DNA from: an uncultured Mycobacteriaceae bacterium
GTDB taxonomy: Bacteria; Actinomycetota; Actinomycetes; Mycobacteriales; Mycobacteriaceae
Length of the DNA: 64,000 nt
Assembly: GCA_902826815.1 (NCBI GenBank)
Contig: CADEGF010000002.1
Span: 139,888-203,887, forward strand
Direction: 5' to 3'
This document shows, one piece after another, positions 28,318-47,204 of this stretch; position 1 is the stretch's first letter; each line of letters opens with the position of its first letter. Both the position numbers and the translations under genes were made by a program. A model generated the notes under the pieces. That model did not search any database, had not been told where the DNA came from, and saw only the letters and a program-made list of their open reading frames with translations.

Positions 28318-28362
28318 CTGGTGCTCCTCACGTCCGCGCAAGTCATTGAAATGCGTGCTCTT

Positions 28363-31640: not shown

Positions 31641-33154
31641 CAGTGGTAGCGGATGTATTGCAGGATGCCGAGCGCCCAAGCGGCGAACGGAATCACCAAG
31701 GCCAACAGGATGTATTCGGTGTATTCGACGACCTTGCGGATCGGCGGCGAGAAGATTCGCGGCGGCACCGCTGTCGCGGCCACCAGGCCCAGCGCCGCGA
31801 TGCCGAGGGCTGCGCCCGCGGCGATCAGCGTCATGGTCGTGTCATCCGCCGCGGCCTCGAGCCCGTACTTCGCGGCGGCGCCGATCAGCGCGGTGACCGA
31901 GATGCCGACCAGGATGATCGCGTGGCGCCGGTCGCGAAATGCCCTGGCGCGCAGGATGAGAATTGCGGCGACCGCTCCGAGCACCACGAGCTGCGCCCAC
32001 TCCCGCTCGCCGTGCGGCGTCACGGCGAACCAGGCCGCGGGCACCGCGACGGCGGCGACGCCGAGCAGCACCCCGGTCAGCACCGTGTTGGACTTGCGCG
32101 CGGCGGCGGCGACCTGTTCGCCGGTCAGCGTGACGTCCGACGGCGGACCGTCCTCGACGGGTGAGACGGTGTCCTCGGGTTGACCGGGTGCGCGGGCGAA
32201 GATGTCGCGGCCGGTGATGGACCCGAAGGTCTGACGCGGAACGTTGGCCATCCTTAGCGCGATCGTCGGTGCGGCGGAGACTGCGACCAGGACGGCGACC
32301 AGGACGGCGATGCCGATCCGGGATCCGGGCACCTCCCAGTACATCCGCACGAGTGCGACCACGGCGGCGCCGAGGCCCGCAGTCATGACCGCCGCGGCCG
32401 CAGTCCAGTAGCGGCCGGTGAACCGGACGAGTAGCCACATACCGGCAAGGGCGGTGGCTGCGGCGAGGAAGGCGTGCGGCGCGCCGGGCGAGCCGCCAGG
32501 CGGAATGGTCGCCGCCGCCAATCCCGCGGTGACCAGCGCCGCCCACGCTGCGCCGTCGGTGACGACCCGGCCCGCTCCGACCCGCGCCCCGATCGCGACC
32601 GTGACGAGCAGGCTGATCGTGGCGGCGGCGAACAGAATCGGGACCAACAACGCGCTCTCCTGGGCAAAGCGCAGCCGCCACAGCAGCATGCTCGCCACGC
32701 CGAGCGCACCGCCGACGATGACCACCGCCACCGCAACGGCGGTCCGTGCCGTCACCCGGACGAAATGATCGGATGCGTACTGCGCAAGAGCGGTCGAGAC
32801 GTTCTCGACCACCGGCCCGTACCGTTCGGCCGAGCCGGCGGGTACCAGCGCAAGCACGTCGCCGTCGGCGATGGTGTGGCCGGCGAGGGAGACATCCGAT
32901 GCCAATGCGGTCATCCCCGCGGCCCGAGCGAATTCATAAGCCGCGGGCGGCAATTCAGCCGCGCCGCGACCGCGCAGCACCTTGTTGATCGCGATGACCG
33001 TTGGGTCGAGCAGTGTGGTGAGTGGTACCGCCGACGGCAGCACGAGATCGATCTGGTTGGAGTCGCCCGCGAGAATCGACACCCGGCACGACGGCGGCAC
33101 CTCGATCGGTGTCGAGGTGCGACCGGTGGAGGTCGATTCGCGAACGGTCGTCAC
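31640..33154 (-). CDS. eccD: ESX membrane channel component EccD
   Basis: A 504-residue protein. The first ~120 residues form a ubiquitin-like cytosolic domain (CRVSILAGDSNQIDLVLPSAVPLTTLLDPTVIAI), then about 11 transmembrane helices follow (for example TAVAVAVVIVGGALGVASMLLW and SALLVPILFAAATISLLVTVAI). EccD dimers line the membrane complex. The start GTG 33154 overlaps the preceding stop (GTGA) and gives the normal family length (about 500). Upstream in-frame codons to 33478 are an unrelated frame of the previous gene. Confidence 0.93.
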   Translation of the reverse strand: MTTVRESTSTGRTSTPIEVPPSCRVSILAGDSNQIDLVLPSAVPLTTLLDPTVIAINKVLRGRGAAELPPAAYEFARAAGMTALASDVSLAGHTIADGDVLALVPAGSAERYGPVVENVSTALAQYASDHFVRVTARTAVAVAVVIVGGALGVASMLLWRLRFAQESALLVPILFAAATISLLVTVAIGARVGAGRVVTDGAAWAALVTAGLAAATIPPGGSPGAPHAFLAAATALAGMWLLVRFTGRYWTAAAAVMTAGLGAAVVALVRMYWEVPGSRIGIAVLVAVLVAVSAAPTIALRMANVPRQTFGSITGRDIFARAPGQPEDTVSPVEDGPPSDVTLTGEQVAAAARKSNTVLTGVLLGVAAVAVPAAWFAVTPHGEREWAQLVVLGAVAAILILRARAFRDRRHAIILVGISVTALIGAAAKYGLEAAADDTTMTLIAAGAALGIAALGLVAATAVPPRIFSPPIRKVVEYTEYILLALVIPFAAWALGILQYIRYH

Positions 33155-34662
33155 CGGCGCTCCCGCGGCCCGTCTGTCGTGGAGGCGAAGTGCTCGGCGA
33201 GTGCGGCGGTGATCTCGATGAACCGCCGTCTCGTCAACGGCGACATTTCCGACGTTACGTCGATGACACCGCCAGGCCGCAGATGCGAGTCGAACGGAAC
33301 CTCGACCACCACCTGACCGCGACTTGCAAACTGCTGCACCAGGATCGACCGGGTGCGCTTGTCGGCATGCCCGTCGGAGTCGTTGAGCACCACCACGGTG
33401 CGATGCAGAAGCCCCGTGTATCCCCGGTTGGCGAGCCATTCCATGGTCTGGCCCGCCGCAGAGGCACCGTCCACCCACGGCGAGGACACCACGATCAATG
33501 CGTCGAGATCACGCAGCACCTCCTGCGCGATAGCGGAGTCCATCGTCGAACCGCAGTCCACGATCGAGATCGTGAAATGTCGGTCCAGCCGACCCGTCGC
33601 CTCCCGGTAGATCGCGGGATCGAGTACCCGTCGCCGGGCTGTACTGGATTCGCCCGCGAGTACGAACAGGCCCGCTGCGTTGTTGCCGACCCGGCTGCGA
33701 ACGTCGGCGAACGAGTCGAGGTGTTCGTCGGCCGCCAACTCCCAGTACGAGCCCGCCGCGTTCGGGTCGATGCGACTGCCGAGCTTGCCGAAGGCGGTGT
33801 CCGCGTCGATGGCCACTACGCGGTCGTCCTGGCGGAACTCGGCGAAGATCGAGCCCACACTGGCCGAGACGGTCGTCTTGCCGACACCGCCCTTGCCGAA
33901 CACGCCGATCTTGTAGTGGCCGCGCAGCAACGAGCGGATCTTGTTCTCAAGGTCGGTCAGTCGCTGCTCATCCGGCGACGGTCCGAGATTGATCAATCCG
34001 AAGGTTCCGCGATGGATGACTCGTCGCCAGCCCTTCTTCGGCGGCATCTTCTTGCTTGGCACGAGTTCGCTGGTGCGGATGCTGTCGACATAGGAATAGC
34101 CGGTCGACGGCGGCGCGGCGGCGGGTGCGGCAGCCCAGTTGGTCGAGGACGACGCGGACGACGACTGCGACGACCAATCCTGGCCTGCCGGACGCGCAAG
34201 CCTCTCCCGAGACGACTCCTGCTGCCAGCCGGGACGGGCGCCGGTCGGCGGCATCCCCCGGGTCGACTCGGCCTCGGTGGCTTCGCGAGGCCTGCCCTCG
34301 GGCGGTGCGCTCGACTCGCCAGGACGGGTGGTGGGCGGCGGAGCCTGCCGAAAGCCGCCGGGCGCGATGCGTTGAGCTCCGCCTGGCCCCCGGCTGGTAT
34401 CCGCCGTCCAGCGTGGCCGGGGGTTGTCGGAGCCTGCGGGGCGGCCCGTCTCCTCCGGTGGCCGACGAGCGGCGTCGTCGCCGGCACGGCGGCCGTCGGC
34501 GTCGGAACCGCCCGACCGTGGCCCGTCGTCGACTCCGTTGCGGCCGGGACCCTCGTCGCGCCCAGGTGGACGGGGCGGCTCCGTCGGCCGGGGCGCAGCG
34601 GGTTCACCCGCATCCGAGGGCGGCGAAAGGTGTTCGCGCAGAAAGTCGTCGCGGTCGGTCAC
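33151..34662 (-). CDS. EspI-like (MinD/ParA-type) ATPase with Pro-rich N-terminus
   Basis: A 503-residue protein (528 if ATG 34737 is used). The N-terminal 180 residues are disordered, rich in Pro, Arg and Glu. The C-terminal half is a deviant Walker P-loop ATPase: VFGKGGVGKTTVSASVGSIFAEF, then VVAIDADTAFGKLGSRI and SIVDCGSTMDSAI. It resembles Rv3888c and EspI. EspI represses ESX-1 secretion when ATP is low; the role of ESX-2 versions is unknown. The start is ambiguous: GTG 34662 overlaps the stop of a short upstream reading frame, while ATG 34737 overlaps the end of eccB. A close paralogue is at 55172-56743. Confidence 0.85.
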   Translation of the reverse strand: MTDRDDFLREHLSPPSDAGEPAAPRPTEPPRPPGRDEGPGRNGVDDGPRSGGSDADGRRAGDDAARRPPEETGRPAGSDNPRPRWTADTSRGPGGAQRIAPGGFRQAPPPTTRPGESSAPPEGRPREATEAESTRGMPPTGARPGWQQESSRERLARPAGQDWSSQSSSASSSTNWAAAPAAAPPSTGYSYVDSIRTSELVPSKKMPPKKGWRRVIHRGTFGLINLGPSPDEQRLTDLENKIRSLLRGHYKIGVFGKGGVGKTTVSASVGSIFAEFRQDDRVVAIDADTAFGKLGSRIDPNAAGSYWELAADEHLDSFADVRSRVGNNAAGLFVLAGESSTARRRVLDPAIYREATGRLDRHFTISIVDCGSTMDSAIAQEVLRDLDALIVVSSPWVDGASAAGQTMEWLANRGYTGLLHRTVVVLNDSDGHADKRTRSILVQQFASRGQVVVEVPFDSHLRPGGVIDVTSEMSPLTRRRFIEITAALAEHFASTTDGPRERR

Positions 34663-34727
34663 GGCGCCAATCCCGACTTCGTGTCCATGGTTTCCTCCGG
34701 TGCTTTTAGTTGAGACTTCGAGTTCAT
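34659..34727 (-). CDS. Possible 22-codon coupling peptide between eccB and the EspI-like gene
   Basis: ATG 34727 overlaps the eccB stop (ATGA) and opens a 22-codon frame (MNSKSQLKAPEETMDTKSGLAP) whose stop overlaps the GTG start of the EspI-like gene. A second in-frame ATG at 34688 follows a strong GGAGGAAACC site. The frame could carry ribosomes from eccB into the next gene. The peptide has no recognisable domain and could equally be chance, since the EspI-like gene might start at 34737 and read through this stretch in another frame. Confidence 0.35.
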   Translation of the reverse strand: MNSKSQLKAPEETMDTKSGLAP

Positions 34728-36217
34728 TGCGGTCCATTCGCCTGGTTCAGCGGAGCGGCATCCGCCGGAGGTGCCAGGGTGTCGTGCTGCGTCATCGCGT
34801 CGCTGCGACTGAGCGCGGGTCCGGGGGCGAAGACCCGGATCAACGGCCACGGCGCCTGCCGAGCCTGAGGCGGTGAAATGCCCAGCGCCCGCAGGGTTTC
34901 ATCGTCCAGCGAGATCCCATACCGCACGCCCTGGTCGCTGATCCACCACATGGATTCGCGGCTGGTGGCGTCCGGCGCCGCACCAGTGGTCATCACCAGG
35001 TTTGTCGCCCCCGGTGACATATATACCTGGTCGGCCTCGATGCTTTCAGGTGACCGGTCATTCTTGACTAACCGCATCAGCCGGTTGTCTGACCCGATCG
35101 GGATCGGCAGCCCCTTACCCGACAGCACGACGGTTTCAGAGGTGCGATCCGTCGACCCCTTCGACCAGGTCAGGCACGTGACCGGATTGGAGGCCGTGTC
35201 GACGAGGTCGAGCCGGGTGGTCGGGTAGTAGTCGATCGGAAGACTTTCCACGACCGGGACGCTGGCCAGCCGGTCCGGCGCGACGACCAGGGGAAGTTCA
35301 TCGCCGAAGGAGTTGGCGGATCGCAGTAGCGACGCGACGAACGGTGAGATCCGCTGCACGCCGTTGCGCAGCAGCACATAGAAGTTGTCGGCGTCCGTCT
35401 CGAGGTCACGGACCGAAAGCACTGAACCGATCACGGCACCCCGCGCGACGTTGAACTGCGACGGGGCACCTGAACCCGGGATAACCGGGGAATTCAGCGG
35501 TTCGGTTGCAGGCAGCGCATCGAACAGTGGTGTCGAGATCTGCACCGGCTCCGGCGCGTCGGTGTCGACTCCGAGCGCTAGTGCGACCGCCTTGTTGGAC
35601 AGGTCGATCTCCGACCGCTGCCCGTTCCAGATGACGTACGTCTTTCTGGCGTGCTCGGTGAGCACCGCTTTCGACGCGTCCAGCGGCGTGGTGCGTGATC
35701 CCACCGAGAGCGGTCCGCCGATCGCGGTGACCAGTGGTGCGGCGTTGGGATTGTCGGGCGCGCTGTCGCAGACCGTCCACTCCGAGCGGTCGGCCGTGCG
35801 CAGCGGCATCGCAGCAGGCGCCCCGGCAATGCCGACCGAGGGGCCCTGGGGGTACTTGGCCAGCTCACTGGCCTTGACGAAGGTGGGGTTACTCGCCTGA
35901 CCGGTGATCAGCCGCGCGCTGACCAGGTTGACGGCCGGGTGCAGCCTGCCGTCGACGAGGACGAAGACCGCACCGGTGTCGCGGTCGGCGAGTATCGCCG
36001 ACTGTCCGACCTGTCCCGCGGGCTTGAACCAGGACATCACGAACATCAACGCGACGGCGAGGATCGCGAAAATGAAGCCGAGGATCATCGATGCGCGTTG
36101 CCGCTGCACCGGGTCGAACTCCATTCGCACACCGTGATGCGACAGCGCAGCGGCATTTCGCCGGTTCCAGAAAAAGTGCGCCGACACCTGAAGTCCGCTG
36201 GCCAGATTCAAAGCCAT
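34724..36217 (-). CDS. eccB: ESX membrane component EccB
   Basis: A 497-residue type II membrane protein. The N-terminus (GLQVSAHFFWNRRNAAALSHHGVRMEFDPVQRQRASMILGF) is the conserved cytosolic tail of EccB, followed by one membrane helix (IFAILAVALMFVMSWF, about residues 47-62). The rest is the periplasmic repeat domain, with ILADRDTGAVFVLVDGRLHPAVNLVSARLI, the standard EccB opening. EccB assembles with EccC, EccD and EccE. In M. tuberculosis ESX-2 I recall eccB2 lying before eccC2; here it lies between espG and the EspI-like gene. Confidence 0.95.
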   Translation of the reverse strand: MALNLASGLQVSAHFFWNRRNAAALSHHGVRMEFDPVQRQRASMILGFIFAILAVALMFVMSWFKPAGQVGQSAILADRDTGAVFVLVDGRLHPAVNLVSARLITGQASNPTFVKASELAKYPQGPSVGIAGAPAAMPLRTADRSEWTVCDSAPDNPNAAPLVTAIGGPLSVGSRTTPLDASKAVLTEHARKTYVIWNGQRSEIDLSNKAVALALGVDTDAPEPVQISTPLFDALPATEPLNSPVIPGSGAPSQFNVARGAVIGSVLSVRDLETDADNFYVLLRNGVQRISPFVASLLRSANSFGDELPLVVAPDRLASVPVVESLPIDYYPTTRLDLVDTASNPVTCLTWSKGSTDRTSETVVLSGKGLPIPIGSDNRLMRLVKNDRSPESIEADQVYMSPGATNLVMTTGAAPDATSRESMWWISDQGVRYGISLDDETLRALGISPPQARQAPWPLIRVFAPGPALSRSDAMTQHDTLAPPADAAPLNQANGPQ

Positions 36218-37296: not shown

Positions 37297-37581
37297 CTAG
37301 ACCCCGAACGAGTTGCCCGCGGCGACGTCGGTGTTCATCATCTCGTCGAGCACGTGCATCACGGTGCTGGAATGCCTGTTGCAGACGTCGACGCCTTCGT
37401 CGATGCCGCTGTTGATCAGCATCTGGGCTTGTTCGAAGGAGCCACCGCCGGTTCCTTCGAACTCCTCGCGGACGGCGACGAGGGCGTTCGTCGCCGACGA
37501 CCGGATGTTCTCGAGATGGCTGGCGGCGCCACCGATGCTCTGGGCGAAATCGGCCATCTCGCCTGGGCTGTACTGAAACAT
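37297..37581 (-). CDS. esxC: WXG100-family protein, EsxC-like, without a canonical WxG
   Basis: A 94-residue helical-hairpin protein (MFQYSPGEMADFAQSIGGAASHLENIRS). The turn reads EFEGTGGGSFEQAQ in place of a W-x-G motif. EsxC of M. tuberculosis ESX-2 also lacks W-x-G in its turn (I recall a His-Gly-Ala-Gln type turn followed by FFDAQAQ). The C-terminus (CNRHSSTVMHVLDEMMNTDVAAGNSF) has no YxxxD/E signal, as expected for the EsxA-type partner of the pair. It should form a heterodimer with the EsxD-like protein encoded 27 bases upstream. A ribosome binding site (AGAAAGGACC) precedes the ATG. Confidence 0.88.
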   Translation of the reverse strand: MFQYSPGEMADFAQSIGGAASHLENIRSSATNALVAVREEFEGTGGGSFEQAQMLINSGIDEGVDVCNRHSSTVMHVLDEMMNTDVAAGNSFGV

Positions 37582-37608
37582 TTGATGGTCCTTTCTGAAG
37601 TCGGGTGA

Positions 37609-37917
37609 TTAGGCCTGCGAGACGCCTTGCATGGCGGCGCGTGCGGCCGCTTCCTGCTCTTCGTATCTGGTTGCTGCGGATTGCAGGGCATGGATCAGCT
37701 CGCCCCACTGGGTGTTGAGCTTCATCTGGGCGTTGTGGATCTCCTCGGTGGTGACCACGTTGGCCGCCGACGCGTCGCCTTGCCATCCGCCACCGGCGAT
37801 GTTGTGCGAGGACTGCAGATAGTTCGTCAGAACGCCCTCGGCCTCGTTACGCAAGTTCTCGAGCTGGCCGGCCGCGGCGCGCAGCTTATCGGCGCCGACG
37901 ATAATGGTTGATGCCAC
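37609..37917 (-). CDS. esxD: WXG100-family protein, EsxD/CFP-10-like
   Basis: A 102-residue protein with the W-x-G turn GGGWQGDAS (about residue 44) and a C-terminal YEEQE that fits the YxxxD/E export signal. It is the EsxB-type partner, carrying the signal for the EsxC-like protein. Residues 1-40 (MASTIIVGADKLRAAAGQLENLRNEAEG) form the first helix. A ribosome binding site (GAGGAAGAGG) lies before the ATG. The pair is preceded by PPE and PE genes, the common ESX order. Confidence 0.92.
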   Translation of the reverse strand: MASTIIVGADKLRAAAGQLENLRNEAEGVLTNYLQSSHNIAGGGWQGDASAANVVTTEEIHNAQMKLNTQWGELIHALQSAATRYEEQEAAARAAMQGVSQA

Positions 37918-38000
37918 TTGATATTCCTCTTCCTCAATTTGCTGACGGGATGTCTAGAGCCTATTCCGCGTTAGCGGAGGTCTTTGCACCAATTTCTCGG

Positions 38001-39239
38001 TCAATCCTCCCTTCCGGAGCGTGGACCAACCGTTAGCTGCATGGTCCTACCCTCGGCGGAGCCTTCCCTGCCGCGCTCATCGCGGCCCATCGCACTGGCT
38101 GCGCCTGCGGCGGCAGGCGCGCCGTAAAGTCCGCCACCGCCACCTGCTGTTGTCGGCCCTGCCGATGCCGCAACCTCGGGCACCCCGGCTCCCGGCGTCC
38201 AACCGGTCGGCAGCTTGGGCGCACCGGGTGCGTTGAAGCTTCCTGTGGGCCGGGTGAAGCTGGACATCACCCCGGCTCCGGAACCGAAGCCGCCACCGCC
38301 GCCGCCGCCGCGGGCCGCGGCATCCGTCGTCGCGGCCAAGGGTGTCTGGTCCAGGCCGCCGGCCATCTTGTCGATTCCGGCGGCGCCACCGCCGGTCATG
38401 CCTTGGCTCAACGGTCCGAGCATGCCCATCGCCATCTGCGGCATCTGGCCGAGCATCTGCGGGAACTGGCCCAGCATCTGCAGCGGTTGGGAAGCCATCT
38501 GCGGCAGCTGACCGAGCTGGCTCATCATCTGCATCGGCATGGAGGCCATCGAGTTGGCGGGCGCGGCCGCGGCCTGGGCACCCGGTTGCACGGCGCTCGA
38601 CGCCTGGTTGACCCCGTTGAGGCTCTGCGACATCGCGGCGCTGGCTGCACCGCTTGCCGCCGCATGGCCGACCGCGGCGGCCTGGCCGGCCTGGCCCGCG
38701 GGGTTGGCCGTCAGGGGCGCGGGCGGTGGCGGCGTGAGGAGCGCGGTGAGGATCGCCATCACGATCCCTTCGTAGCCGCCCATCTGCCCGGCGTTGTTGA
38801 TCCAGAACCCCTCGTAAGCAGCGTCGAGGACCCCCATCGGCGGAAAGTTGATGCCGCAGAAGTTCGTCATGGCGAGACCGGTCCAGGTGTCGCGGTTCAC
38901 GTTGCAGACCGGCACCTGAATCATCGACATCTTGGCGGTGACGTACGCCTGCTCGATTCCGGCCGCCGAGACTGCCGACTGCTGCACCCATGCGGCGAGA
39001 AGCTGTAGCGCGGCGACGTAGGGCATCGCGGTGGCCATCATCGCGGTTCCGCCGACGCCGACCCATCCGGTCGAAGCGGTGATGCCCGCGGTGGCCGCCA
39101 TCTTGGCGCCCTCTGCGGTGAGCGCCGCGGCAAGCGCCTCGTACGCCGCCGCTGCCGCGGCGATGCTGGCGCCTTGGTCGCCGAGCATCAGCTGGCCGGC
39201 GTTAACCTCGGGTGGAAATAGACTCCACTGGCCCGCCAC
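38001..39239 (-). CDS. PPE family protein (PPE69-like position)
   Basis: A 412-residue protein. The PPE domain (about residues 1-180) starts MAGQWSLFPPEVNAGQLML and has the WxG of the helical bundle in STGWVGVGGTAMMAT. The C-terminal 230 residues are rich in Ala, Gln, Met and Gly (repeats such as MPQMAMGMLGPLSQGM and GGGGGGGFGSG) and probably disordered. PPE proteins are exported through ESX as heterodimers with PE partners. It directly follows the PE gene (six-base gap). The EspG-binding tip would be in the PPE domain around residues 120-140. Confidence 0.9.
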   Translation of the reverse strand: MAGQWSLFPPEVNAGQLMLGDQGASIAAAAAAYEALAAALTAEGAKMAATAGITASTGWVGVGGTAMMATAMPYVAALQLLAAWVQQSAVSAAGIEQAYVTAKMSMIQVPVCNVNRDTWTGLAMTNFCGINFPPMGVLDAAYEGFWINNAGQMGGYEGIVMAILTALLTPPPPAPLTANPAGQAGQAAAVGHAAASGAASAAMSQSLNGVNQASSAVQPGAQAAAAPANSMASMPMQMMSQLGQLPQMASQPLQMLGQFPQMLGQMPQMAMGMLGPLSQGMTGGGAAGIDKMAGGLDQTPLAATTDAAARGGGGGGGFGSGAGVMSSFTRPTGSFNAPGAPKLPTGWTPGAGVPEVAASAGPTTAGGGGGLYGAPAAAGAASAMGRDERGREGSAEGRTMQLTVGPRSGRED

Positions 39240-39245
39240 GAGCGG

Positions 39246-39554
39246 CTAAGCCCCTCCGATGGTGGCCGCGGCGGTGTTGATGGCCTCGACCGCGGTGTAC
39301 GTTGCGCCGCTTGAGCCGATCGCGCCAGCGAACAGTTCCCGCATGGCGATGTACTCGGCCAGGATGCCCGTGGTGGCGGCGCTGCGGGCAACCAGCGCCG
39401 CTGCCGCCCGCACCGACACGTCATCGGCGCCAGGAGGGAGAACGGCGGAGGTGGGTCCTGCCGCGGCGGCTGCCGCAGCCGCCAGAGTGGCGGCGGCGCC
39501 GCTCTCCGAGCTGGCCGCCGCTGCCAAGATCGCCGGATCGACGTTTATTAGCAT
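39246..39554 (-). CDS. PE family protein (PE36-like position)
   Basis: A 102-residue PE protein: two amphipathic helices rich in Ala (DPAILAAAASSESGAAATLAAAAAAAAGPTSAVLPPGADDVSVRAAAALVAR). The C-terminus carries YTAVE, which fits the YxxxD/E secretion signal. It should pair with the PPE protein encoded next. There is no extension beyond the PE domain. The gene starts 94 bases after the eccC stop. Confidence 0.9.
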   Translation of the reverse strand: MLINVDPAILAAAASSESGAAATLAAAAAAAAGPTSAVLPPGADDVSVRAAAALVARSAATTGILAEYIAMRELFAGAIGSSGATYTAVEAINTAAATIGGA

Positions 39555-39647: not shown

Positions 39648-42587
39648 CTAAGTTTGCGGGCTTGCCGGAGTCGGTGGAACAGGAGGAGCACTCCACCCGA
39701 TAAGAGCACTTGTAGTGCCTGTTCGCGTGAAGAAGATGGCTTTGCCAGAGCGCTGCGGTTCGGCATAGATGTCCGCGACGATCTTTCCGGCGTCGCGGCG
39801 CCCGTCCATGACCAGGATCGGTGCGAGTGAAGCGCGGAGTTTGCCAAGTACGGAACTGCCGATGGCCACCTGATTCCAGTTAGCCACCGCGGTGGCGGCA
39901 AATACATGCAGCCCGGTATCCCTTGCGCCTTCGACGTGCGGGCCCAGGTTCATCAGCGGGTTGTCCATCGATGACCACACCCCGGCATCGTCGACCACGA
40001 CGAAGATTTCGGGTCCGGAGTAGAACTTCTTCGTCATCATCTCCTCCTGCGTCGTGCCCGGAGGGGGCTGGCGACCGTCGAGTTCAGCAACGAGATCGCG
40101 GATCGCTTCGCGGATCGCGGTCTGGGTGTAGGCGTAGTCGCGCAGATGCGGCCCCTGCACGACACCGAGCAGGGTCCGGCGGGGGTCGAGCACCAGGATC
40201 TGGGCCTCTTCGGGGGGATAGAGGGACGTGATCGACCGGCACATCACCCGAAGGAAGTTCGTCCGGCCAGACCGCGGCGCACCGACCGCGATGGCATGCG
40301 GGTGATCCGCGATGTCGATGTAGGCGGGCCCGAGGTCGGTCTCGGAAAGGCCGAACGGGACAAGGCTGCGCCGGGCGACCGGCTGGGCCAGTCGCTGAAC
40401 CTCTTCGAACGGCACGGACTCGGGCAGCCTGCTGACGGTTGCCGCCTTCTGCACACCCGAGACCTGTGCGATCAGCGCGCCGATATCGCGCGTCGCCACC
40501 CCGCCTTCCGCACGTTCGCCGAGTTCCGGGACGCCGATCAACAGATGCATGCCGGGCTTGGTCAACCCTCGGCCCGGCATCCCTTTCGGGACCTTCTTGG
40601 CGAGCTGACGATTCATCTCGGAATCGCCTGGGTCGGTCAGCCGCAGCTCGATGCGTTCGGTCGCAAGCGGCTTGAGCGCCTGCTTGAAACCCTGCAGATA
40701 GCTCGTGTGCGAGACGACGATGTGCACGCCGTAGCCCAGGCTGCGCCCCAACGCGACGATGTGGTCAACGTACTGGGGAAACTCGGTGGCGAAGGCCGCC
40801 CAGCCGTCGATGACGAGGACGACGTCGCCGCCTGCGACGGGGACCTGTTCGGGCTTGTCGCTGAACTTGCGCCGCCGAACCTCCTCCATATCCAGCCCGG
40901 ACTTGGCGAACACCGCCTCACGTTCGGCGACGATGCCCTGCACCGACGAAATGATGCGGCCGACGCCCTCGCGGTCGACCGCCGGAGCCAGGCCCGCCAC
41001 GTGTGGCAACCCTGCGACGGCCGACAGGCTCGGGCCGCCTGCGGCCACGCAGTAGAACTGGACCCGCTCCGGCCGGTACATCAGCGCCGCTGTGGTCATC
41101 ATCGTCGCCAGGGTGGTGGTCACACCCGACTGCGGTCCGCCGATCACCAATGCGTTGGCGCCGAGCAGATCGAGCGCGTGCACGTCCTGACGGTGCTGTC
41201 GCGGGCGGTCCTCGATGCCGACCGGGAAAGTGAGGCCGGGATTGCGGCCGTAGTCGACATCCCACGGCTTGCCGCGCACGAGTCGGACCAACTGGTCGGC
41301 TGTCGGCGACTGTTCCAGCGGGGGAAGCCAGAGCTGGCGCGGAGGCCGCGCGCCGGTCGCCTTCAACGAGTCGACGATCGTGTCGACGACCGTCGGCGGC
41401 AGCTCGCCCGGCGCCAATGCCGTAGGCGCCTGCTCCTCGACCGGCGCGGGCTCCTGGTCGTTCGTCTCCGGGGGTGCCAGCAGACCCTCGACGTCGGGTA
41501 CCTCGGTGGCGGTGAACGTCCGTGGGGTGAACCAGGTACCGGCGGCGGCCACCTGTGCGGGCCCGCCGTCCTCGGGTGGCGGCACGAACGGTGGCGACGT
41601 GTAGAACGCCCGGAACTCGCGGGGCGGCCGCATGCCCTCGCGCAGGTATCCGGTGCCCTCCTTGCCCTTCTCGGGCAGGTGGGCGGCGATCGACGAGCCG
41701 ATGGCTTCGCGAGAGTCCTCTTCGGTGCCTGTTCGCAGCGCCATGAAGAAGCCGATGAGGCTGCGAATCTTCATCAGGCGGTGGGAGTCGACGGTCTGAC
41801 CGGCCAACTGCAGGAAGACGTGCATCGATCGACCCTGGCGCACGATGCGCCAACAGAGGTCGACGAACTCGGCGCCCAGCTCGCTGCGGAACAGCTCCTG
41901 GTACTCGTCGATGATCACGACGAGACCCGGCACCGGCTCCAACGACGGGTCGACCATCCGCTTTTCGTTGTAGACGTTGAGGTCCTTGCAGTTCGTCGCG
42001 GCACAGAGCGCGCCTCGACGGTCGAGTTCTCCCTCGAGCGCCTCGAGCATGCGCTCGACGAGGTGCGTCTCGTCACCGAGGTTGCTGACGCTGGCCACCA
42101 CATGCGGAAAGCGTTCCAGCACAATGCCTGCCGACTTCATCTTCCAGTCCAGGAAGGCGACGTTGACCGTTTCGGGCGAGTGCGTCAAGGCCAACGAGGT
42201 GACCTCAGTGATGATGGTCTCCGACTTGCCTGAGCCCGAGAAGCCGATCAGCACCGAGTGCATGCCCATCCCGTATTGAGATGTCTCCTTCAGGTCCAAT
42301 TCGACGATCTCGCCGGTCGGATCGAGCCCGATCGGGAAGCGCATCCACAGCCGATTCTGGGTGCGGCGGGCCGACCATAGCCGGTCGACGTCCAGCTTGC
42401 GCGCATCGCGAATGCCGAGAACTTCCAACAGGTCTCGACCGGGGCCGTCGGAGGTCGCAGCAGCCGACGCCGCGCCTGCGGGCCGCCACGGAGCCATGCT
42501 GCGCGCGAACCTCTCGGCCTCGGCGATGCTCATGGTGTCGGCGACGGCGTAGAAGGCGTCGTCGAGTTCCTCGGGCAGTGATGTCAC
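39648..42587 (-). CDS. eccCb: EccC ATPase part (three FtsK/SpoIIIE-type modules), separate from its membrane part
   Basis: A 979-residue protein with three tandem P-loop ATPase modules. Module 1 has Walker A GFSGSGKSE (about residue 115) and Walker B LVVIIDEYQELF. Module 2 has the degenerate P-loop IGGPQSGVTTT and VVLVIDGWAAF. Module 3 has AVGAPRSGRTN and IFVVVDDAGVW. EccC drives ESX secretion; module 3 normally binds the C-terminal signal of EsxB-type substrates. The start is GTG 42587, overlapping the stop of the upstream EccC part (GTGA). Its first residues (PEELDDAFYAVADTMSIAEAERFARSMAPWRP) match the linker that usually precedes module 1. The usual split, in ESX-1, lies between modules 1 and 2 instead. 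Confidence 0.93.
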   Translation of the reverse strand: MTSLPEELDDAFYAVADTMSIAEAERFARSMAPWRPAGAASAAATSDGPGRDLLEVLGIRDARKLDVDRLWSARRTQNRLWMRFPIGLDPTGEIVELDLKETSQYGMGMHSVLIGFSGSGKSETIITEVTSLALTHSPETVNVAFLDWKMKSAGIVLERFPHVVASVSNLGDETHLVERMLEALEGELDRRGALCAATNCKDLNVYNEKRMVDPSLEPVPGLVVIIDEYQELFRSELGAEFVDLCWRIVRQGRSMHVFLQLAGQTVDSHRLMKIRSLIGFFMALRTGTEEDSREAIGSSIAAHLPEKGKEGTGYLREGMRPPREFRAFYTSPPFVPPPEDGGPAQVAAAGTWFTPRTFTATEVPDVEGLLAPPETNDQEPAPVEEQAPTALAPGELPPTVVDTIVDSLKATGARPPRQLWLPPLEQSPTADQLVRLVRGKPWDVDYGRNPGLTFPVGIEDRPRQHRQDVHALDLLGANALVIGGPQSGVTTTLATMMTTAALMYRPERVQFYCVAAGGPSLSAVAGLPHVAGLAPAVDREGVGRIISSVQGIVAEREAVFAKSGLDMEEVRRRKFSDKPEQVPVAGGDVVLVIDGWAAFATEFPQYVDHIVALGRSLGYGVHIVVSHTSYLQGFKQALKPLATERIELRLTDPGDSEMNRQLAKKVPKGMPGRGLTKPGMHLLIGVPELGERAEGGVATRDIGALIAQVSGVQKAATVSRLPESVPFEEVQRLAQPVARRSLVPFGLSETDLGPAYIDIADHPHAIAVGAPRSGRTNFLRVMCRSITSLYPPEEAQILVLDPRRTLLGVVQGPHLRDYAYTQTAIREAIRDLVAELDGRQPPPGTTQEEMMTKKFYSGPEIFVVVDDAGVWSSMDNPLMNLGPHVEGARDTGLHVFAATAVANWNQVAIGSSVLGKLRASLAPILVMDGRRDAGKIVADIYAEPQRSGKAIFFTRTGTTSALIGWSAPPVPPTPASPQT

Positions 42588-43741
42588 CGGTAGCCGACCC
42601 CCACACGCTTGCGCAGCACCCCGTTCGACAGCCGGTACGTGGTGTCGGGATCGAAGCCGACGCCGAACCCCACTTCTGGCGCCAACCGGACGAAGCACAC
42701 GCGACCGACGCCGCGCTTACCGGTGGCGCCCGCCCAGTCCTCGGCCGCGCCGCAGTTGTCGTCGATGATCACCCAGAGTGGCGGTGCGGACGGATCCGGG
42801 CCGCCGTGCAGGCCGCTGGCCGGCGGCGTCCACTCCTTGCGATCAAGGAGTTCGTCGCCTGCGAAGGCTTCCAGTTCGGTGGGCGAGGTGAACACGAGCC
42901 TGCGCTCACCGCATCCGTCACGGGCCTCGCGGTGCTGGCAGTGCGGCAGCCACTTCAGCCAATCCCAGCTGCCCGGCGCCGACGTCACCACCATGATCTG
43001 CAGATCGGCAGGGCTGTGGAACGCGGCGAGCTGGCAGACCATCGATCGCGCGACGCTGCGCACCGAATCCATCTCGCCGACCAGGGAGATGCCGGGGCTG
43101 CGCTCCAGCCACAGCACCCGGGCCATCCCGCGGACATGACGTTGTTCGAGCAGGAACTTGCGCAGTGCGTGACCCGTCGCTGGTTCGATCTTGGAGGCCG
43201 CCGCTATCTGCGGCTTGTCGACGGTCATCGCCAGCTCGACGCGCCCGGTGCCAAGGCGCACCACACCGAACTCCGGGTCGCCGGGGCGACGCTCCCACAT
43301 CCGTGGCGAGCCCGCGATGCTCACCAATTCTGAAGGCGCCCAATGGCTGTGCTCGCGGTGCTCCCACTGCTTGCGGGCGGCCTCCTGCACTTCGTCGCGC
43401 ACCTCGTCGAGGCGGGCGAAGTACTCACGGCGGTACTGCTCGAGCTGGCTCCACGGCATCTTCTGGGCGGCCCCGCGTCCGCGGAAGAGCATTCCGCCCA
43501 TGCTCATCAGCATGATCAGAGGGAAGATGGCAAACCCGGTAGCAAGCGATCGCTGGCCCGATACGTACATCGCGATGATGAATCCGAGGACGCCGACGAT
43601 GAGGCCGATCGGCAGCACGATGCCCCAGATGCTTCGCGGTGGCGGGACCGGTGCTGCGATCGGCGGTTCGACCGCGATCTTGCCCCCACCGGCCTCGGGA
43701 GGTGGCACACGCGGTGGTGGCACGAAGGGGCGGGTGGTCAC
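42584..43741 (-). CDS. eccCa: EccC N-terminal part: membrane anchor plus DUF ATPase-like domain
   Basis: A 385-residue protein with a Pro-rich start, two membrane helices (IWGIVLPIGLIVGVLGFIIAMYV and LATGFAIFPLIMLMSMGGML) and the EccC stalk/DUF domain (MPWSQLEQYRREYFARLDEVRDEVQ; FGVVRLGTGRVELAMTVDKPQ; RALPRT-type middle; FVRLAPEVGFGVGFDPDTTYRLSNGVLRKRV). In complete EccC proteins this region is followed at once by ATPase module 1. Here it ends at 42584 and the modules are made from a separate, overlapping gene. The two products must meet in the membrane complex. GTG 43741 is the start. A frameshift in an original single gene is the alternative explanation. Confidence 0.9.
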   Translation of the reverse strand: MTTRPFVPPPRVPPPEAGGGKIAVEPPIAAPVPPPRSIWGIVLPIGLIVGVLGFIIAMYVSGQRSLATGFAIFPLIMLMSMGGMLFRGRGAAQKMPWSQLEQYRREYFARLDEVRDEVQEAARKQWEHREHSHWAPSELVSIAGSPRMWERRPGDPEFGVVRLGTGRVELAMTVDKPQIAAASKIEPATGHALRKFLLEQRHVRGMARVLWLERSPGISLVGEMDSVRSVARSMVCQLAAFHSPADLQIMVVTSAPGSWDWLKWLPHCQHREARDGCGERRLVFTSPTELEAFAGDELLDRKEWTPPASGLHGGPDPSAPPLWVIIDDNCGAAEDWAGATGKRGVGRVCFVRLAPEVGFGVGFDPDTTYRLSNGVLRKRVGVGYR

Positions 43742-43797: not shown

Positions 43798-44097
43798 TCA
43801 GCGGCTGGCTTTCCAGGACTCTTGAGCAACCACATTTGCGCTAGCAAGTAAATCGTTGAGCTTATCCTCGAGGGCGAGGTGGGTGAGCCTGCCAGGGACC
43901 GACTCGGCGATGGCCAGGCTGAGCAACCGACCGTCGGGGCCGAGTTGGATACGGATGTCGCCGTCGGGGTCGAGCGCGTCTGTGCGAAGTGCGGCGAGAC
44001 GGTCCAAGACGGACGTCAGCTCGTCGTAGGTCGCCGCCAATTCAGCCTGGCTGTACTTGACCTTGGCGGCGTCATCGAGGTCATCGAATCCGGTCAT
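43798..44097 (-). CDS. YbaB/EbfC-like small protein of the ESX locus (EspL-like)
   Basis: A 99-residue protein (109 if ATG 44127 is used). SQAELAATYDELTSVLDRLAALRTDALDPDGDIRIQLGPDGRLLSLAIAESVPGRLTHLALEDKLNDLLASANVVAQESW shows the YbaB/EbfC-type fold: helix, three-stranded sheet and long helix. EspL of ESX-1 has the same fold. YbaB proteins bind DNA, but those in ESX loci appear to support substrate stability. A paralogue lies at 60252-60626. It ends 57 bases before the EccC N-terminal gene. Confidence 0.72.
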   Translation of the reverse strand: MTGFDDLDDAAKVKYSQAELAATYDELTSVLDRLAALRTDALDPDGDIRIQLGPDGRLLSLAIAESVPGRLTHLALEDKLNDLLASANVVAQESWKASR

Positions 44098-44113
44098 CGT
44101 CGGCGATCTCTCA

Positions 44114-45802
44114 TCAGTGACGACCATCGTTCAACGGCGCCAACGTGATTCGGTGCATGATCGGCCCGCGCGGCGGCGGGTCGCCGTCGGAGTTCGTATT
44201 GGAGTCGGCGCGACTACGAGAGGCCTCGGCGGCCGCCGCGGTGCGGTCGGCGACCCTTCCGGTCACCGCCTCGGTGTGCGGCGTAGGCGGCGTGACGACC
44301 TTCTTGTCCGCTGCGACTGCGACCTTGTCGGCGCCGTCGCCGCCACTCTGGCCGTGCCCCATCAGCCCGCTCATCGGCATGCCCATCGGCATCCCGCCCA
44401 TCGCGGAACCGCCCGATGGTGTCGGCCCCGTCGTTGTCGGAGGGGGCGCGGCGCCCGGCGGCATGGTCGGCGGCGTGTGCGACGTCGACGGGGTGACGGG
44501 CGGTCCGAGCGCACCGGCCGGATGGGTGTCACCGACACCACCGCCTCCGCCCGCTCCACCGCCGCCCCCTGCTTTGGACAACTCGTCCGATTTGACGACG
44601 CCCGCCTTCTTGGTCAGCTCGGCGTCCGTGGCGTTCTTCGCCATGAGCCCGCCCAGCCCCTGTTGGGCGGCCTGTGCCAGGCCCTGACCGCTCTGCATGA
44701 GTTGCTGCGGGACCTGCCCGGCCATGCCGGCCATCCCGCCCGCCATCCCACCGATGGCCTGAAGCGCCTGAGGCAGCATCTGCGCCAACTGATCGGCCCC
44801 CTGGCCCGCCTGGGCGGCTTCCGTTGCACCTGTCGCGCCTGTCTTGGCCAGCTGCTGGCCCTGGCCACCGACCGCGGCGGCTTGTGCCGGGGCGACTGCC
44901 CCTGTGCCCGCGCCCGCGGGAACGCCGCCACCTGTCGGTACGCTCGGCGCAGGCGTCGACGGTGTGCCGATACCCGTGGTGGCGTCTGTCGTCATGGCAT
45001 ACCGCGACGCCTCTGCTGTCCCGAGCGCTTGAAGCCTGCCAAGCTTCATGCCCGCTTGAGACCGACTGATCTCGTTGGTGGCCTGCGCGAATTCATCCCT
45101 GGCAGCCTGGAACTCCTCCGGCTTCGGCGTCGCGGACACCGTCTGGCCAAAGTCGTCGGCGTGCCTGCGCGACTGGCTTGCGATCTCGAACCAACGATCC
45201 GAGATCGTGTTGAGGTTGGTGACGTACTCGTTGAGCCGACCCGCCAGCGCGGCGGTGCCCGTCGGGCTCTCCCACATTTCGGGTACCGCCGCGGCGATTT
45301 CCCGAACCGTAGTGGCCGCAGTGTCGATAGCCGCGCCGTTATCGGTCGCTGTGCTGGCAAACCCGACTCCGTGGGACGGCGACCCGGCGTGCACAAGTTG
45401 CGAGAACCCCTCTCCGCTCAGTGGCGTGCCGGGCGACATGGGCAACCGCACGTCAGGCGGGATCATCGGCACGGGGGAAAGAGTGGCAAGGGCGACATCG
45501 TCGGTGGCTTTCGACACGCCTACCAACATCGTCAGCCCGTAGGCATTGATCTCCTCCTGGGTGCCGAACTTAGCCGCGATCATCGCCAGGTGCGAAGCAG
45601 CCTTCTGAAGGCTGGCGGCCTGTGCCTTTGCCGCGCCCCACAATTCCAGAGAGGCGGTGTCGAGGCGCGCAGCCGCACCACCCGACGTGGGGTCCCCGGC
45701 GAGCGGAGTCATCTGTGCAAGCGCGCCCTGCGCCGAAGTCGCCAGGCCCATCAGCTTCTGTGAGGCGGCCATCAGCCCGGGTACGTCGACCTTGATCGTC
45801 AT
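44114..45802 (-). CDS. EspB-like secreted substrate (fused helical PE-like and PPE-like domains)
   Basis: A 562-residue protein. Residues 1-100 (MTIKVDVPGLMAASQKLMGLATSAQGALAQMTPLAG) form an EspC/PE-like helical segment ending KFGTQEEINAYG. Residues about 140-290 are PPE-like (EIAAAVPEMWESPTGTAALAGRLNEYVTNLNTISDRWFEIASQ). The remaining half is low complexity, rich in Gly, Ala, Met and Pro, with MGGMPMGMPMSGLMGHG. The single-chain PE-PPE arrangement recalls EspB of ESX-1; this is inference, not a sequence match. The ATG at 45802 begins a conserved-looking helix. It is an expected exported substrate. Confidence 0.7.
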   Translation of the reverse strand: MTIKVDVPGLMAASQKLMGLATSAQGALAQMTPLAGDPTSGGAAARLDTASLELWGAAKAQAASLQKAASHLAMIAAKFGTQEEINAYGLTMLVGVSKATDDVALATLSPVPMIPPDVRLPMSPGTPLSGEGFSQLVHAGSPSHGVGFASTATDNGAAIDTAATTVREIAAAVPEMWESPTGTAALAGRLNEYVTNLNTISDRWFEIASQSRRHADDFGQTVSATPKPEEFQAARDEFAQATNEISRSQAGMKLGRLQALGTAEASRYAMTTDATTGIGTPSTPAPSVPTGGGVPAGAGTGAVAPAQAAAVGGQGQQLAKTGATGATEAAQAGQGADQLAQMLPQALQAIGGMAGGMAGMAGQVPQQLMQSGQGLAQAAQQGLGGLMAKNATDAELTKKAGVVKSDELSKAGGGGGAGGGGGVGDTHPAGALGPPVTPSTSHTPPTMPPGAAPPPTTTGPTPSGGSAMGGMPMGMPMSGLMGHGQSGGDGADKVAVAADKKVVTPPTPHTEAVTGRVADRTAAAAEASRSRADSNTNSDGDPPPRGPIMHRITLAPLNDGRH

Positions 45803-45809
45803 CGGCGGC

Positions 45810-46085
45810 CTACAGCTCTGCCAGCTTCCGCTCGGCGTCGGCGAGGTCCTGCTCAGTCGGCATATCGTCCACCGGAATCGACCTCCCCTCCAGCTCGGCA
45901 CGGATCACCAGCTGCCCCCTCAGATACGCAACATCGTTACACGCCATGATGCCCTGTGCGATTTCGATGGCCGACCGCTTCATGGCGGCGGGCTCGATCT
46001 GCACCCCGAGCGTATGACCGGCGAGTGCCACCCGGACGAAGATGGTGTTGTCCGGTGTTGCGGCGGTGAACGACTCCTCAGTCAA
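45810..46085 (-). CDS. Small ESX-associated protein, DUF2694-like
   Basis: A 91-residue protein. The start TTG 46085 overlaps the end of the EspC-like gene by eight bases; no ATG or GTG fits before the conserved part ESFTAATPDNTIFVRVALAGHTLGVQIEPAAMKRSAIEIAQGIMACNDVAYLRGQL. The strand-strand-strand-helix order resembles a half YbaB domain and fits the DUF2694 proteins found in ESX loci. The C-terminal tail is acidic (DDMPTEQDLADAERKLAEL). A similar protein is encoded at 59935-60255. Function unknown. Confidence 0.7.
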   Translation of the reverse strand: MTEESFTAATPDNTIFVRVALAGHTLGVQIEPAAMKRSAIEIAQGIMACNDVAYLRGQLVIRAELEGRSIPVDDMPTEQDLADAERKLAEL

Positions 46086-46377
46086 GGCGGACCGCCGCGG
46101 CGTTGATCTCTTCTTGGTCGGCGAATCGCTTCGCGATGGAACGCAGGTTGTCGGCGGCGGCGCGGTGCGCCGCCTCATGGTCGGCGAAGGCCGATTCGCG
46201 ACGCTGGATGACGTCGTTGGCCGCCGCCTTGAACTGATGCATGATCGGCCCGTGGGTGGCCACCGACGCGAGGATCTCCGATGACGCACCGCGGGCCACC
46301 GCGATCTCATCGGCGACGCTTTCATGCTGTAGGGCAACCTGATTCAGCAATGATGGGGTGATACGAATGTTTGTCAT
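46078..46377 (-). CDS. EspC-like type VII secretion substrate
   Basis: A 99-residue two-helix protein of the EspC/EspF type. MTNIRITPSLLNQVALQHESVADEI is helix 1, THGPIMHQFKAAANDVIQ matches the EspC turn (THGPxxxQF), and helix 2 ends AKRFADQEEINAAAVRLD. The usual YxxxD/E export signal is replaced by FADQE, and there is no Tyr in the protein. Helix 2 shares its ending (F-x-x-Q-E-E-I-N-A) with the first domain of the EspB-like protein two genes on. An ATG with a GGAG site (GTAGGAGCACAC) supports the start. Confidence 0.78.
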   Translation of the reverse strand: MTNIRITPSLLNQVALQHESVADEIAVARGASSEILASVATHGPIMHQFKAAANDVIQRRESAFADHEAAHRAAADNLRSIAKRFADQEEINAAAVRLD

Positions 46378-46385
46378 GTGTGCTC

Positions 46386-47204
46386 CTACAGGAGGCGGGC
46401 GGGCCGGGTCTGCGCGGGACCGTTCTCCGGAGGCTCGCGATCGCTTGGCGGGCTCGGCTCGGTAGCACGGTCTTCGGTGTCGTCTTCGGGGGCTTCGTCG
46501 TCTGACTCGCTGTCAGCGCTTTCGTCTGCGTCTCCAGCCTGATCAGCATCGCGCGGTGCCTCGGCGCGATCCTCGGGACTGTCGGATTGGCCCGCGCGGT
46601 CGAGAAGGCCCGAGGCCATTCCCGCCAGCGGCGTTGCGGCACCGGTCAGACCGCCCGCCCCTTGAGCCGGAGCCGCAGCTGCGCCCTGCGCCGCCTGAGG
46701 CAATGCCCCGAGCGCTGAGCCGACGGCGGGCATCATGCCGCCCGCGGCCTGGTCGGGCGACTGCGAAGGAACGTCGCGCGCCGTGCTGGATGGAGGGGCC
46801 GGTAGTAGGTAACCGCTGCCGAGCGCGCGGGTCAGCGCGGCGTGATCCTCGTCGGTGAGAGAGCCGGTGTCGACGACGGCCTGGATCTCGGCGATCTTGC
46901 CGCGCAAGAACATCAGGAAGTGGCGCTCGCCCGCCGGAGTGTCCAGCGCCGCTACCGGATTGGTGATGGCCTCGATCAGCTGCCGCTGAATGTCCTGCAG
47001 CTTCGTGCGGCCGGACACCGTCACGGCGTGCGCGCTCAGGATCGCTTCGGTGAGTTGGATTTCCGCCGACCGCAGCTCGGAGTAGTCGGCACTCAGCTCG
47101 GCCTGCAGGGTTCGAACCGCATCGGCGGCCGCGCCAGACTGCGTGGTTTCGACAGACTCCGTGGTTTCGGGGAACTGCGTGGTTTCGACGGAAGGGTATG
47201 TCAC
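46386..47204 (-). CDS. ESX-associated protein with DUF4226-like domain
   Basis: A 272-residue protein. Residues 20-130 (AVRTLQAELSADYSELRSAEIQLTEAILSAHAVTVSGRTKLQDIQRQLIEAI and ERHFLMFLRGKIAEIQAVVDTGSLTDEDHAALTRALGSGYLLP) form the likely DUF4226 domain, a long helical bundle. The rest is disordered, with a Pro/Gly-rich part and an acidic tail (ESDDEAPEDDTEDRATEPSPPSDREPP). The N-terminal residues repeat TTQFPETTESVETTQ. The start GTG 47204 overlaps the stop of the 50-residue gene upstream. I am not sure of the family, and the function is unknown. Confidence 0.65.
   Translation of the reverse strand: MTYPSVETTQFPETTESVETTQSGAAADAVRTLQAELSADYSELRSAEIQLTEAILSAHAVTVSGRTKLQDIQRQLIEAITNPVAALDTPAGERHFLMFLRGKIAEIQAVVDTGSLTDEDHAALTRALGSGYLLPAPPSSTARDVPSQSPDQAAGGMMPAVGSALGALPQAAQGAAAAPAQGAGGLTGAATPLAGMASGLLDRAGQSDSPEDRAEAPRDADQAGDADESADSESDDEAPEDDTEDRATEPSPPSDREPPENGPAQTRPARLL

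What the first reader, a model, noticed from the sequence alone, without database searches (positions are those of the whole stretch)
42584..42587. EccC is split between its membrane/DUF part and its three ATPase modules
Seen: one gene encodes the two helices and DUF region and ends TGA at 42584. A second gene starts GTG at 42587 in another frame, overlaps by four bases (GTGA), and carries all three P-loop modules. Known: EccC is either one chain or, in ESX-1, divided between modules 1 and 2. Inference: this is a different cut that turns the motor into a separable cytosolic triple-ATPase plus a membrane receptor. A single-base frameshift in an original one-chain gene would look the same, but GGGGG lies about ten bases before the GTG and many junctions of this operon have the same overlap.
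Basis: partly seen in the sequence, partly recalled or inferred. Interest (0 to 1): 0.8.

Follow-up and report, generated by a model that had tools for sequence, protein, structure and literature searches.

The report
Secretion motor cut at its hinge
In a group of mycobacteria the motor protein of a type VII secretion system is encoded by two overlapping genes, cut between its membrane-anchored part and its ATPase modules; other plasmid-borne systems carry a similar cut that likely arose separately, and the two halves would have to dock with each other for the machine to work.

Summary
On the minus strand, 43741-42584 encodes a 385-aa EccC front part (membrane helices, stalk, DUF); 42587-39648, in another frame and overlapping by GTGA, encodes a 979-aa part with three FtsK-type modules. 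It is unlikely to be an error: the same GTGA cut stands in 6 of 6 genomes of this lineage that I read, one a single-contig genome, with in-frame length changes on both sides. Both pieces are under purifying selection (Ka/Ks 0.04-0.17 and 0.05-0.22). Of 120 listed relatives of the ATPase part, the 19 with >=78% identity and >=97% coverage are 957-1009 aa; the next, at 64%, are one chain. So the cut is a derived trait of one branch beside plasmid ESX-P2 systems. Similar cuts occur in a second plasmid family (11 of 396 genomes) and a M. paragordonae plasmid; the trees need at least three changes. The cut lies where the mobile ATPase arm leaves the membrane-bound domain of ESX-5 EccC. Only module 1 has a canonical Walker A. 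Two proteins and their docking remain unshown. New variant of a known kind.

The parts
42584..43741 (-). eccC front gene: two membrane helices, stalk, DUF (385 aa)
   Evidence: TIGR03924 positions 1-326; model with helices 38-60 and 72-88, stalk 97-132, last DUF strand 375-380; best PDB matches EccC5
39648..42587 (-). eccC ATPase gene: three FtsK/SpoIIIE-type modules (979 aa)
   Evidence: PF01580, three stretches; TIGR03924 positions 356-672 and TIGR03925; Walker motifs; first 50 residues of low confidence in the model
42584..42587 (-). GTGA: start of the ATPase gene overlapping the stop of the front gene
   Evidence: Same in 6 of 6 genomes read
42590..42607 (-). G-rich stretch before the GTG, possible ribosome-binding site (inferred)
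   Evidence: Pairing energies at the six junctions -6.2 to -13.2 against a background median of -3.0; the G run itself is not conserved in G161
34724..36217 (-). eccB of the same cluster
   Evidence: PF05108, TIGR03919
36316..37242 (-). espG-like gene
   Evidence: PF14011; the start codon is uncertain
26566..34737 (-). eccA (label recalled), eccE, mycP, eccD and minD/espI-like genes
   Evidence: Matches in order to the annotated M. poriferae plasmid cluster for eccE, mycP, eccD and minD; eccA matched only in G372
37297..39554 (-). PE, PPE and two Esx-like genes
   Evidence: Order and similarity to related clusters
43798..47204 (-). Accessory genes upstream of eccC (YbaB-like, PPE/EspB-like, DUF2694-like, EspF-like and one more; labels partly recalled)
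   Evidence: Weak PPE match for 44114-45802; order shared with related clusters

Best explanation
EccC, the ATPase of a type VII secretion (ESX) system, is encoded here by two overlapping genes cut in the linker between its DUF domain and ATPase module 1; the two proteins are likely made from one message by coupled translation and are predicted to dock with each other in the membrane complex. Shown: the cut, its presence throughout the sampled lineage, purifying selection on both pieces, the domain content of each, and the one-chain form in the nearest sister systems. Inferred: an ancestral one-chain eccC of a system related to plasmid ESX-P2 was cut once in this lineage. A ribosome that ends the front protein would re-start at the overlapping GTG. 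The front protein (helices, stalk, DUF) would build into the membrane core with EccB, EccD and EccE. The ATPase protein would attach from the cytosol at the point where the arm pivots in ESX-5, so that a covalent hinge becomes a docking site. ESX-1 already has an EccC in two proteins, cut one module later.
For: Same GTGA cut in 6 of 6 genomes read, with in-frame 30-nt and 33-nt length changes on either side. Five best of 396 genomes split, next match one chain. Ka/Ks 0.041-0.174 and 0.050-0.215 over 15 pairs each (the G375 ATPase piece is cut short by its contig). The 19 near-complete database relatives of >=78% identity are 957-1009 aa, and 17 of them begin at the equivalent point. The front model ends five residues after its last strand, and the ATPase model is of low confidence over its first 50 residues: a linker. 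A second plasmid family and a M. paragordonae plasmid have similar cuts, the former with an AAGGAGG before an 11-nt overlap in most members. ESX-5: DUF bound to EccD, mobile arm after it (PMC8131196, passages). ESX-1 EccC in two proteins (PMC6954902, passage).
Against: No protein data. Pairing with the 16S end is ordinary in two of the six junctions, -6.6 and -6.2, where about 17% of random 16-mers reach -6. Three partial database proteins of 82-97% identity run across the boundary (P0037, P0147, P0190); each carries further out-of-frame stretches, so I take them for faulty assemblies, but I did not see their DNA. A fourth partial one, P0116, was not examined.
Confidence: 0.8

Rival explanations
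1. Sequencing or assembly error: a one-chain gene that looks cut because of a misread base.
For: The window's genome is a draft of 141 contigs; frame breaks of that sort exist in other eccC records.
Against: Same cut in 6 of 6 genomes read, one of them a single contig, with in-frame length changes around it.
Confidence: 0.02
2. Decay: the cut is a recent disabling mutation and the motor is dead.
For: Cut genes are often pseudogenes; other plasmid eccC genes in this survey are broken in other places (L141, L145, L172).
Against: Ka/Ks well below 1 in both pieces over 15 pairs each; intact frames in all six; Walker A and B of module 1 kept in 6 of 6; the rest of the cluster is conserved too.
Confidence: 0.03
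3. Programmed frameshift: ribosomes also make one long chain by slipping near the overlap, so that one- and two-protein forms coexist.
For: The frames overlap: the ATPase frame is open upstream of its GTG. A G run lies just before the stop in five of six.
Against: The G run is not conserved in G161. The 33-nt extra stretch of G161 follows the GTG directly, inside the ATPase gene. The second family has another overlap with a clear AAGGAGG start signal.
Confidence: 0.08
4. One ancient cut followed by several re-fusions, instead of separate cuts.
For: The tree counts changes and cannot by itself tell gain from loss.
Against: One-chain forms surround the split ones: M. madagascariense next to the second family, 17 one-chain rows next to the window clade. 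The cut sits at different points: after the last DUF strands in the window clade, before them in the second family, in between in M. paragordonae (by eye). Holding the two main split clades together is rejected (p 6e-51), though the group was chosen after seeing the tree.
Confidence: 0.06

Closest known systems
ESX-1 EccCa1/EccCb1 (PMC6954902, passage)
   Same: EccC in two proteins
   Different: ESX-1 is cut between ATPase 1 and ATPase 2; here the cut is one module earlier, so all three modules leave the membrane part
One-chain EccC of plasmid ESX clusters (M. poriferae pJCM12603, M. branderi, M. avium)
   Same: Domain order; in M. poriferae also the gene order around eccC; 53-69% identity over the front part
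   Different: One continuous chain of about 1380-1470 codons in the relatives fetched, apart from the frame-broken L048
Second plasmid ESX family (M. lentiflavum, M. pseudoshottsii, M. aubagnense and others), related to the ESX-P2' plasmids of M. chubuense by the naming of PMC4791881
   Same: Cut between the DUF and ATPase module 1
   Different: 32-41% identity; 11-nt or wider overlap; the cut a little earlier, before the last DUF strands (by eye)
ESX-2-like system of M. paragordonae pMpg-2 (plasmid record; PMC6616192, passages)
   Same: EccC in two genes, 402 and 973 aa as annotated
   Different: 35-36% identity; the cut inside the last DUF strands (by eye); the passages that I read do not mention the cut

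Membership tests
EccC (actinobacterial T7SS motor) | EccCa and EccCb profile coverage | tested here: met
   TIGR03924 1-326 and 356-672 over the two pieces, TIGR03925 above its cut-off; each piece alone is below the TIGR03924 cut-off, as expected for a divided domain
EccC (actinobacterial T7SS motor) | Two membrane helices, stalk and DUF before the ATPase modules | tested here: met
   Hydropathy and model; PDB matches to EccC5 and EccC3
EccC (actinobacterial T7SS motor) | Three FtsK-type modules with module 1 catalytically complete | tested here: met
   Three PF01580 stretches; module 1 Walker A and B kept, modules 2 and 3 without the Walker A lysine; activity not tested
EccC (actinobacterial T7SS motor) | Lies in a cluster with eccB, eccD, eccE, mycP, Esx, PE/PPE | tested here: met
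ESX-1-type EccCa1/EccCb1 split | Cut between ATPase 1 and ATPase 2 | tested here: not met
   All three modules are on the second piece
ESX-P2 (plasmid ESX, naming of PMC4791881) | EccC groups with ESX-P2 members | tested here: inconclusive
   On the tree the window clade lies beside one-chain plasmid relatives, inside M. bolletii plasmid 2, which PMC4791881 lists as P2; pMKMS01 was not included
ESX-P2 (plasmid ESX, naming of PMC4791881) | No eccA; plasmid-borne | tested here: not met
   An eccA-like gene stands at 26566-28341 (label recalled), and the locus lies in a 5.46 Mb single contig in G372
Two-protein motor that reassembles | Both proteins made and bound to each other | not testable with these tools
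   Needs protein data

The most novel reading that the evidence does not exclude
Mobile mycobacterial secretion systems have cut their motor at the hinge at least three separate times, turning the swinging ATPase arm into a detachable subunit: the membrane pore can assemble without its motor and load it on demand, possibly exchanging arms between pores or between co-resident ESX systems.
Probability: 0.25. Interest if true: 0.78.

Novelty: new variant of a known kind. Interest (0 to 1): 0.5.

Why it matters
How EccC's ATPase arm couples to the membrane pore is open: in ESX-5 the arm is seen in two conformations starting from the DUF (PMC8131196, passages). Systems in which the protein is cut at that pivot, in at least three lineages by the trees and with purifying selection on both halves in the one lineage tested, suggest that a covalent link there is dispensable, and they offer two natural half-proteins whose binding can be measured. 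It also helps annotation: the front piece is filed as 'hypothetical protein' in four plasmid records that I opened.

Tried and rejected
Frameshift artefact and decay were tested and rejected. A link between the cut and the degenerate Walker A of modules 2 and 3 was rejected: the one-chain sisters share the degeneracy. No conserved run of Gs that could serve as a slippery site was found across the six junctions.

Dropped rows: L123 (frame break inside module 1 beside Ns) and L048/L063 (frame break inside module 1) were left out of the trees, as were L141 and L145 (stop or frame break inside the front part, not this cut). L172 (a TGA inside the front part) came in after the trees were drawn. L134 (MAG, frames of 397 and 1003 codons, the stop directly followed by ATG) counts as a fourth change only; it is a short MAG contig and I do not rest the claim on it. 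L068, identical to L067 in its ATPase part, was left out. The trees used a choice of the loci held (48 and 34 rows), not all.

Standalone front pieces seen only as proteins (P0026 M. mageritense, P0031, P0041/P0044/P0047 M. abscessus, P0043) may be further split lineages. With P0047, 1 of 396 genomes matched at E 1e-85 (G213, 47% identity, frame of 1395 codons); with P0026, 0 of 396 at E 1e-140. Their gene context is unseen.

Earlier reports of this cut: nine paper searches. I saw listings only, save for passages of six papers (PMC12803027, PMC6954902, PMC4791881, PMC7478629, PMC6616192, PMC8131196). The lists were longer than what was shown, and one search's single hit, a Listeria EssC paper, was not opened. 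No report was found, but this is a weak negative.

Full report
OBSERVATION. The minus strand of the window carries an ESX-type cluster (about 26566-47204). Its eccC is in two frames: 43741-42584 (GTG...TGA, 385 aa) and 42587-39648 (GTG...TAG, 979 aa), sharing GTGA. NCBIfam divides one EccCa profile between them: TIGR03924 positions 1-326 on the first and 356-672 on the second, followed by TIGR03925. Aligned with one-chain relatives, the front piece ends shortly after the conserved LRKR stretch, and the second begins shortly before the conserved AFYA-AD stretch, so little is lost at the cut.

NOT AN ERROR. In a search of 396 same-genus genomes with the front piece, 390 had some match. The five best (G000, G375, G372, G143, G161; 85-100% identity) sit in frames of 388-398 codons, while the next, G263 at 69%, sits in a frame of 1380 (weaker matches are not all listed). 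The junctions of these five, and of M. agri CCUG37673 found by name, read GTGA: 6 of 6. G372 is one contig of 5,458,722 bases. Across the first five there are 30-nt and 33-nt in-frame length changes on either side of the overlap. Ka/Ks over 15 pairs is 0.041-0.174 for the front piece and 0.050-0.215 for the ATPase piece. In a search of 5.8 billion proteins, 492 relatives of the ATPase piece reached E 1e-100 and 120 were listed. The 19 with at least 78% identity and 97% coverage measure 957-1009 aa; the first one-chain form has 64% identity and 1377 aa. Of the 19, 17 begin at the equivalent point and two (P0108, P0111) at a later ATG. Four more listed entries of >=78% identity cover only part: P0116, P0147, P0037, P0190. 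Three of these run across the boundary, but they contain further out-of-frame stretches inside the ATPase part and out-of-frame residues at the junction; I take them for faulty assemblies without having seen their DNA. P0116 was not examined.

ANATOMY. The front piece has two hydrophobic stretches and the ATPase piece none at the threshold used. AlphaFold2 (46 sequences, pLDDT 83) gives helices 38-60 and 72-88, a stalk 97-132 and a DUF whose last strand is 375-380, five residues from the end. The best PDB matches are EccC5 of ESX-5 (7b9s, 7np7) and EccC3 of ESX-3 (6umm), with weak matches to FtsK-type ATPases. The ATPase piece (28 sequences, pLDDT 80) is of low confidence over its first 50 residues and better from about residue 51. 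Module 1 keeps GSGKSE and IIDE in 6 of 6; module 2 has V and module 3 has R in place of the Walker A lysine in 6 of 6. The one-chain sisters compared lack these lysines too, so this is likely older than the cut.

HOW IT LIKELY WORKS. In ESX-5 the DUF (first NBD) is bound to EccD, and the three following modules form an arm seen in an extended and a contracted state, starting from the DUF-EccD interface (PMC8131196, passages). The cut is at this pivot. I infer that the front protein builds into the membrane complex, that the ATPase protein is made by re-start at the overlapping GTG, and that it docks at the pivot. Support for re-start: the overlap is conserved. Pairing of the upstream bases with the 16S end (recalled letters) is -9.6, -6.6, -8.1, -13.2, -6.2 and -9.3 at the six junctions, against a background median of -3.0 and a 5% point of -8.6 (1,500 random 16-mers): three beyond that point, one near it, two ordinary. 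Of 17 junctions in the operon, three have 4-nt overlaps. The docking itself is untested.

ORIGIN. The nearest one-chain relatives (53-69% over the front piece) include plasmids of M. poriferae, M. branderi and M. avium. By the naming of PMC4791881 (passages) the lineage lies beside ESX-P2. The window cluster has an eccA-like gene, and in G372 it lies in a chromosome-sized contig, so I do not file it as ESX-P2. Fructose-PTS genes stand on one side in G000, G375, G372 and G143; in G161 they were not found in the 34 kb fetched.

RECURRENCE. A second plasmid family, 32-41% identical, is also cut: M. lentiflavum, M. pseudoshottsii, M. aubagnense, M. scrofulaceum, M. nebraskense and a MAG. In the same 396 genomes, 20 matched its front piece at E 1e-80: 11 are split (junctions read) and 9 are not, one of these with a TGA inside the front part. 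Its overlap is 11 nt with an AAGGAGG before it in most, weaker in M. pseudoshottsii, and wider in M. aubagnense. A third case is a M. paragordonae plasmid. On a tree of 48 ATPase parts the split label (14 rows) needs four changes, all forced by well-supported branches; the fourth is the MAG L134. On a tree of 34 front parts, with 12 split rows and without L134, it needs three. The two main split clades as one group are rejected (p 6e-51; chosen after seeing the tree). The exact cut point differs among the three families (by eye). M. paragordonae sits on a long branch in both trees, so its place is the least sure.

KNOWN OR NEW. A two-protein EccC is known from ESX-1, cut between ATPase 1 and 2 (PMC6954902, passage). 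I found no report of a cut before ATPase 1 in nine paper searches (named in Tried and rejected), of which I read only listings and passages of six papers. Plasmid records already show the pieces as 'hypothetical protein' and 'EccCb'. Hence a new variant of a known kind, of moderate interest, raised by its recurrence at the hinge.

Noticed in passing
window 39648-42587 (-): Modules 2 and 3 of the ATPase piece lack the Walker A lysine (V and R in its place); the one-chain sister plasmids lack it too, while the one-chain EccC copies elsewhere in this genome keep it.
   Followed up: partly
L158-L165 (G276 and seven others): Seven genomes carry a front piece of the second split family with the same score (750.1 bits, 94% identity), which suggests recent horizontal spread.
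   Followed up: no
L048 and L063 (G345 / M. pyrenivorans, contig of 76111 bases): eccC frame break inside ATPase module 1 in a draft genome, a different place from the window's cut.
   Followed up: partly
L141 (M. farcinogenes plasmid), L145 (M. arabiense plasmid), L172 (G230): Stop or frame break inside the eccC front part: possible decayed plasmid systems or sequence faults.
   Followed up: no
window 44114-45802 (-): The PPE/EspB-like protein varies much more (31-72% to the relatives fetched) than the core genes around it, for instance 80-95% for the ATPase piece in the split lineage.
   Followed up: no
L039 (G375 contig 240) about 9998-10180: The contig end carries an inverted match to the same ATPase stretch, probably an assembly fold-back.
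   Followed up: no
proteins P0026, P0031, P0041, P0043, P0044, P0047: Standalone EccC front pieces of 387-418 aa from M. mageritense, M. abscessus and unnamed sources: possible further lineages with the same cut, gene context unseen.
   Followed up: partly
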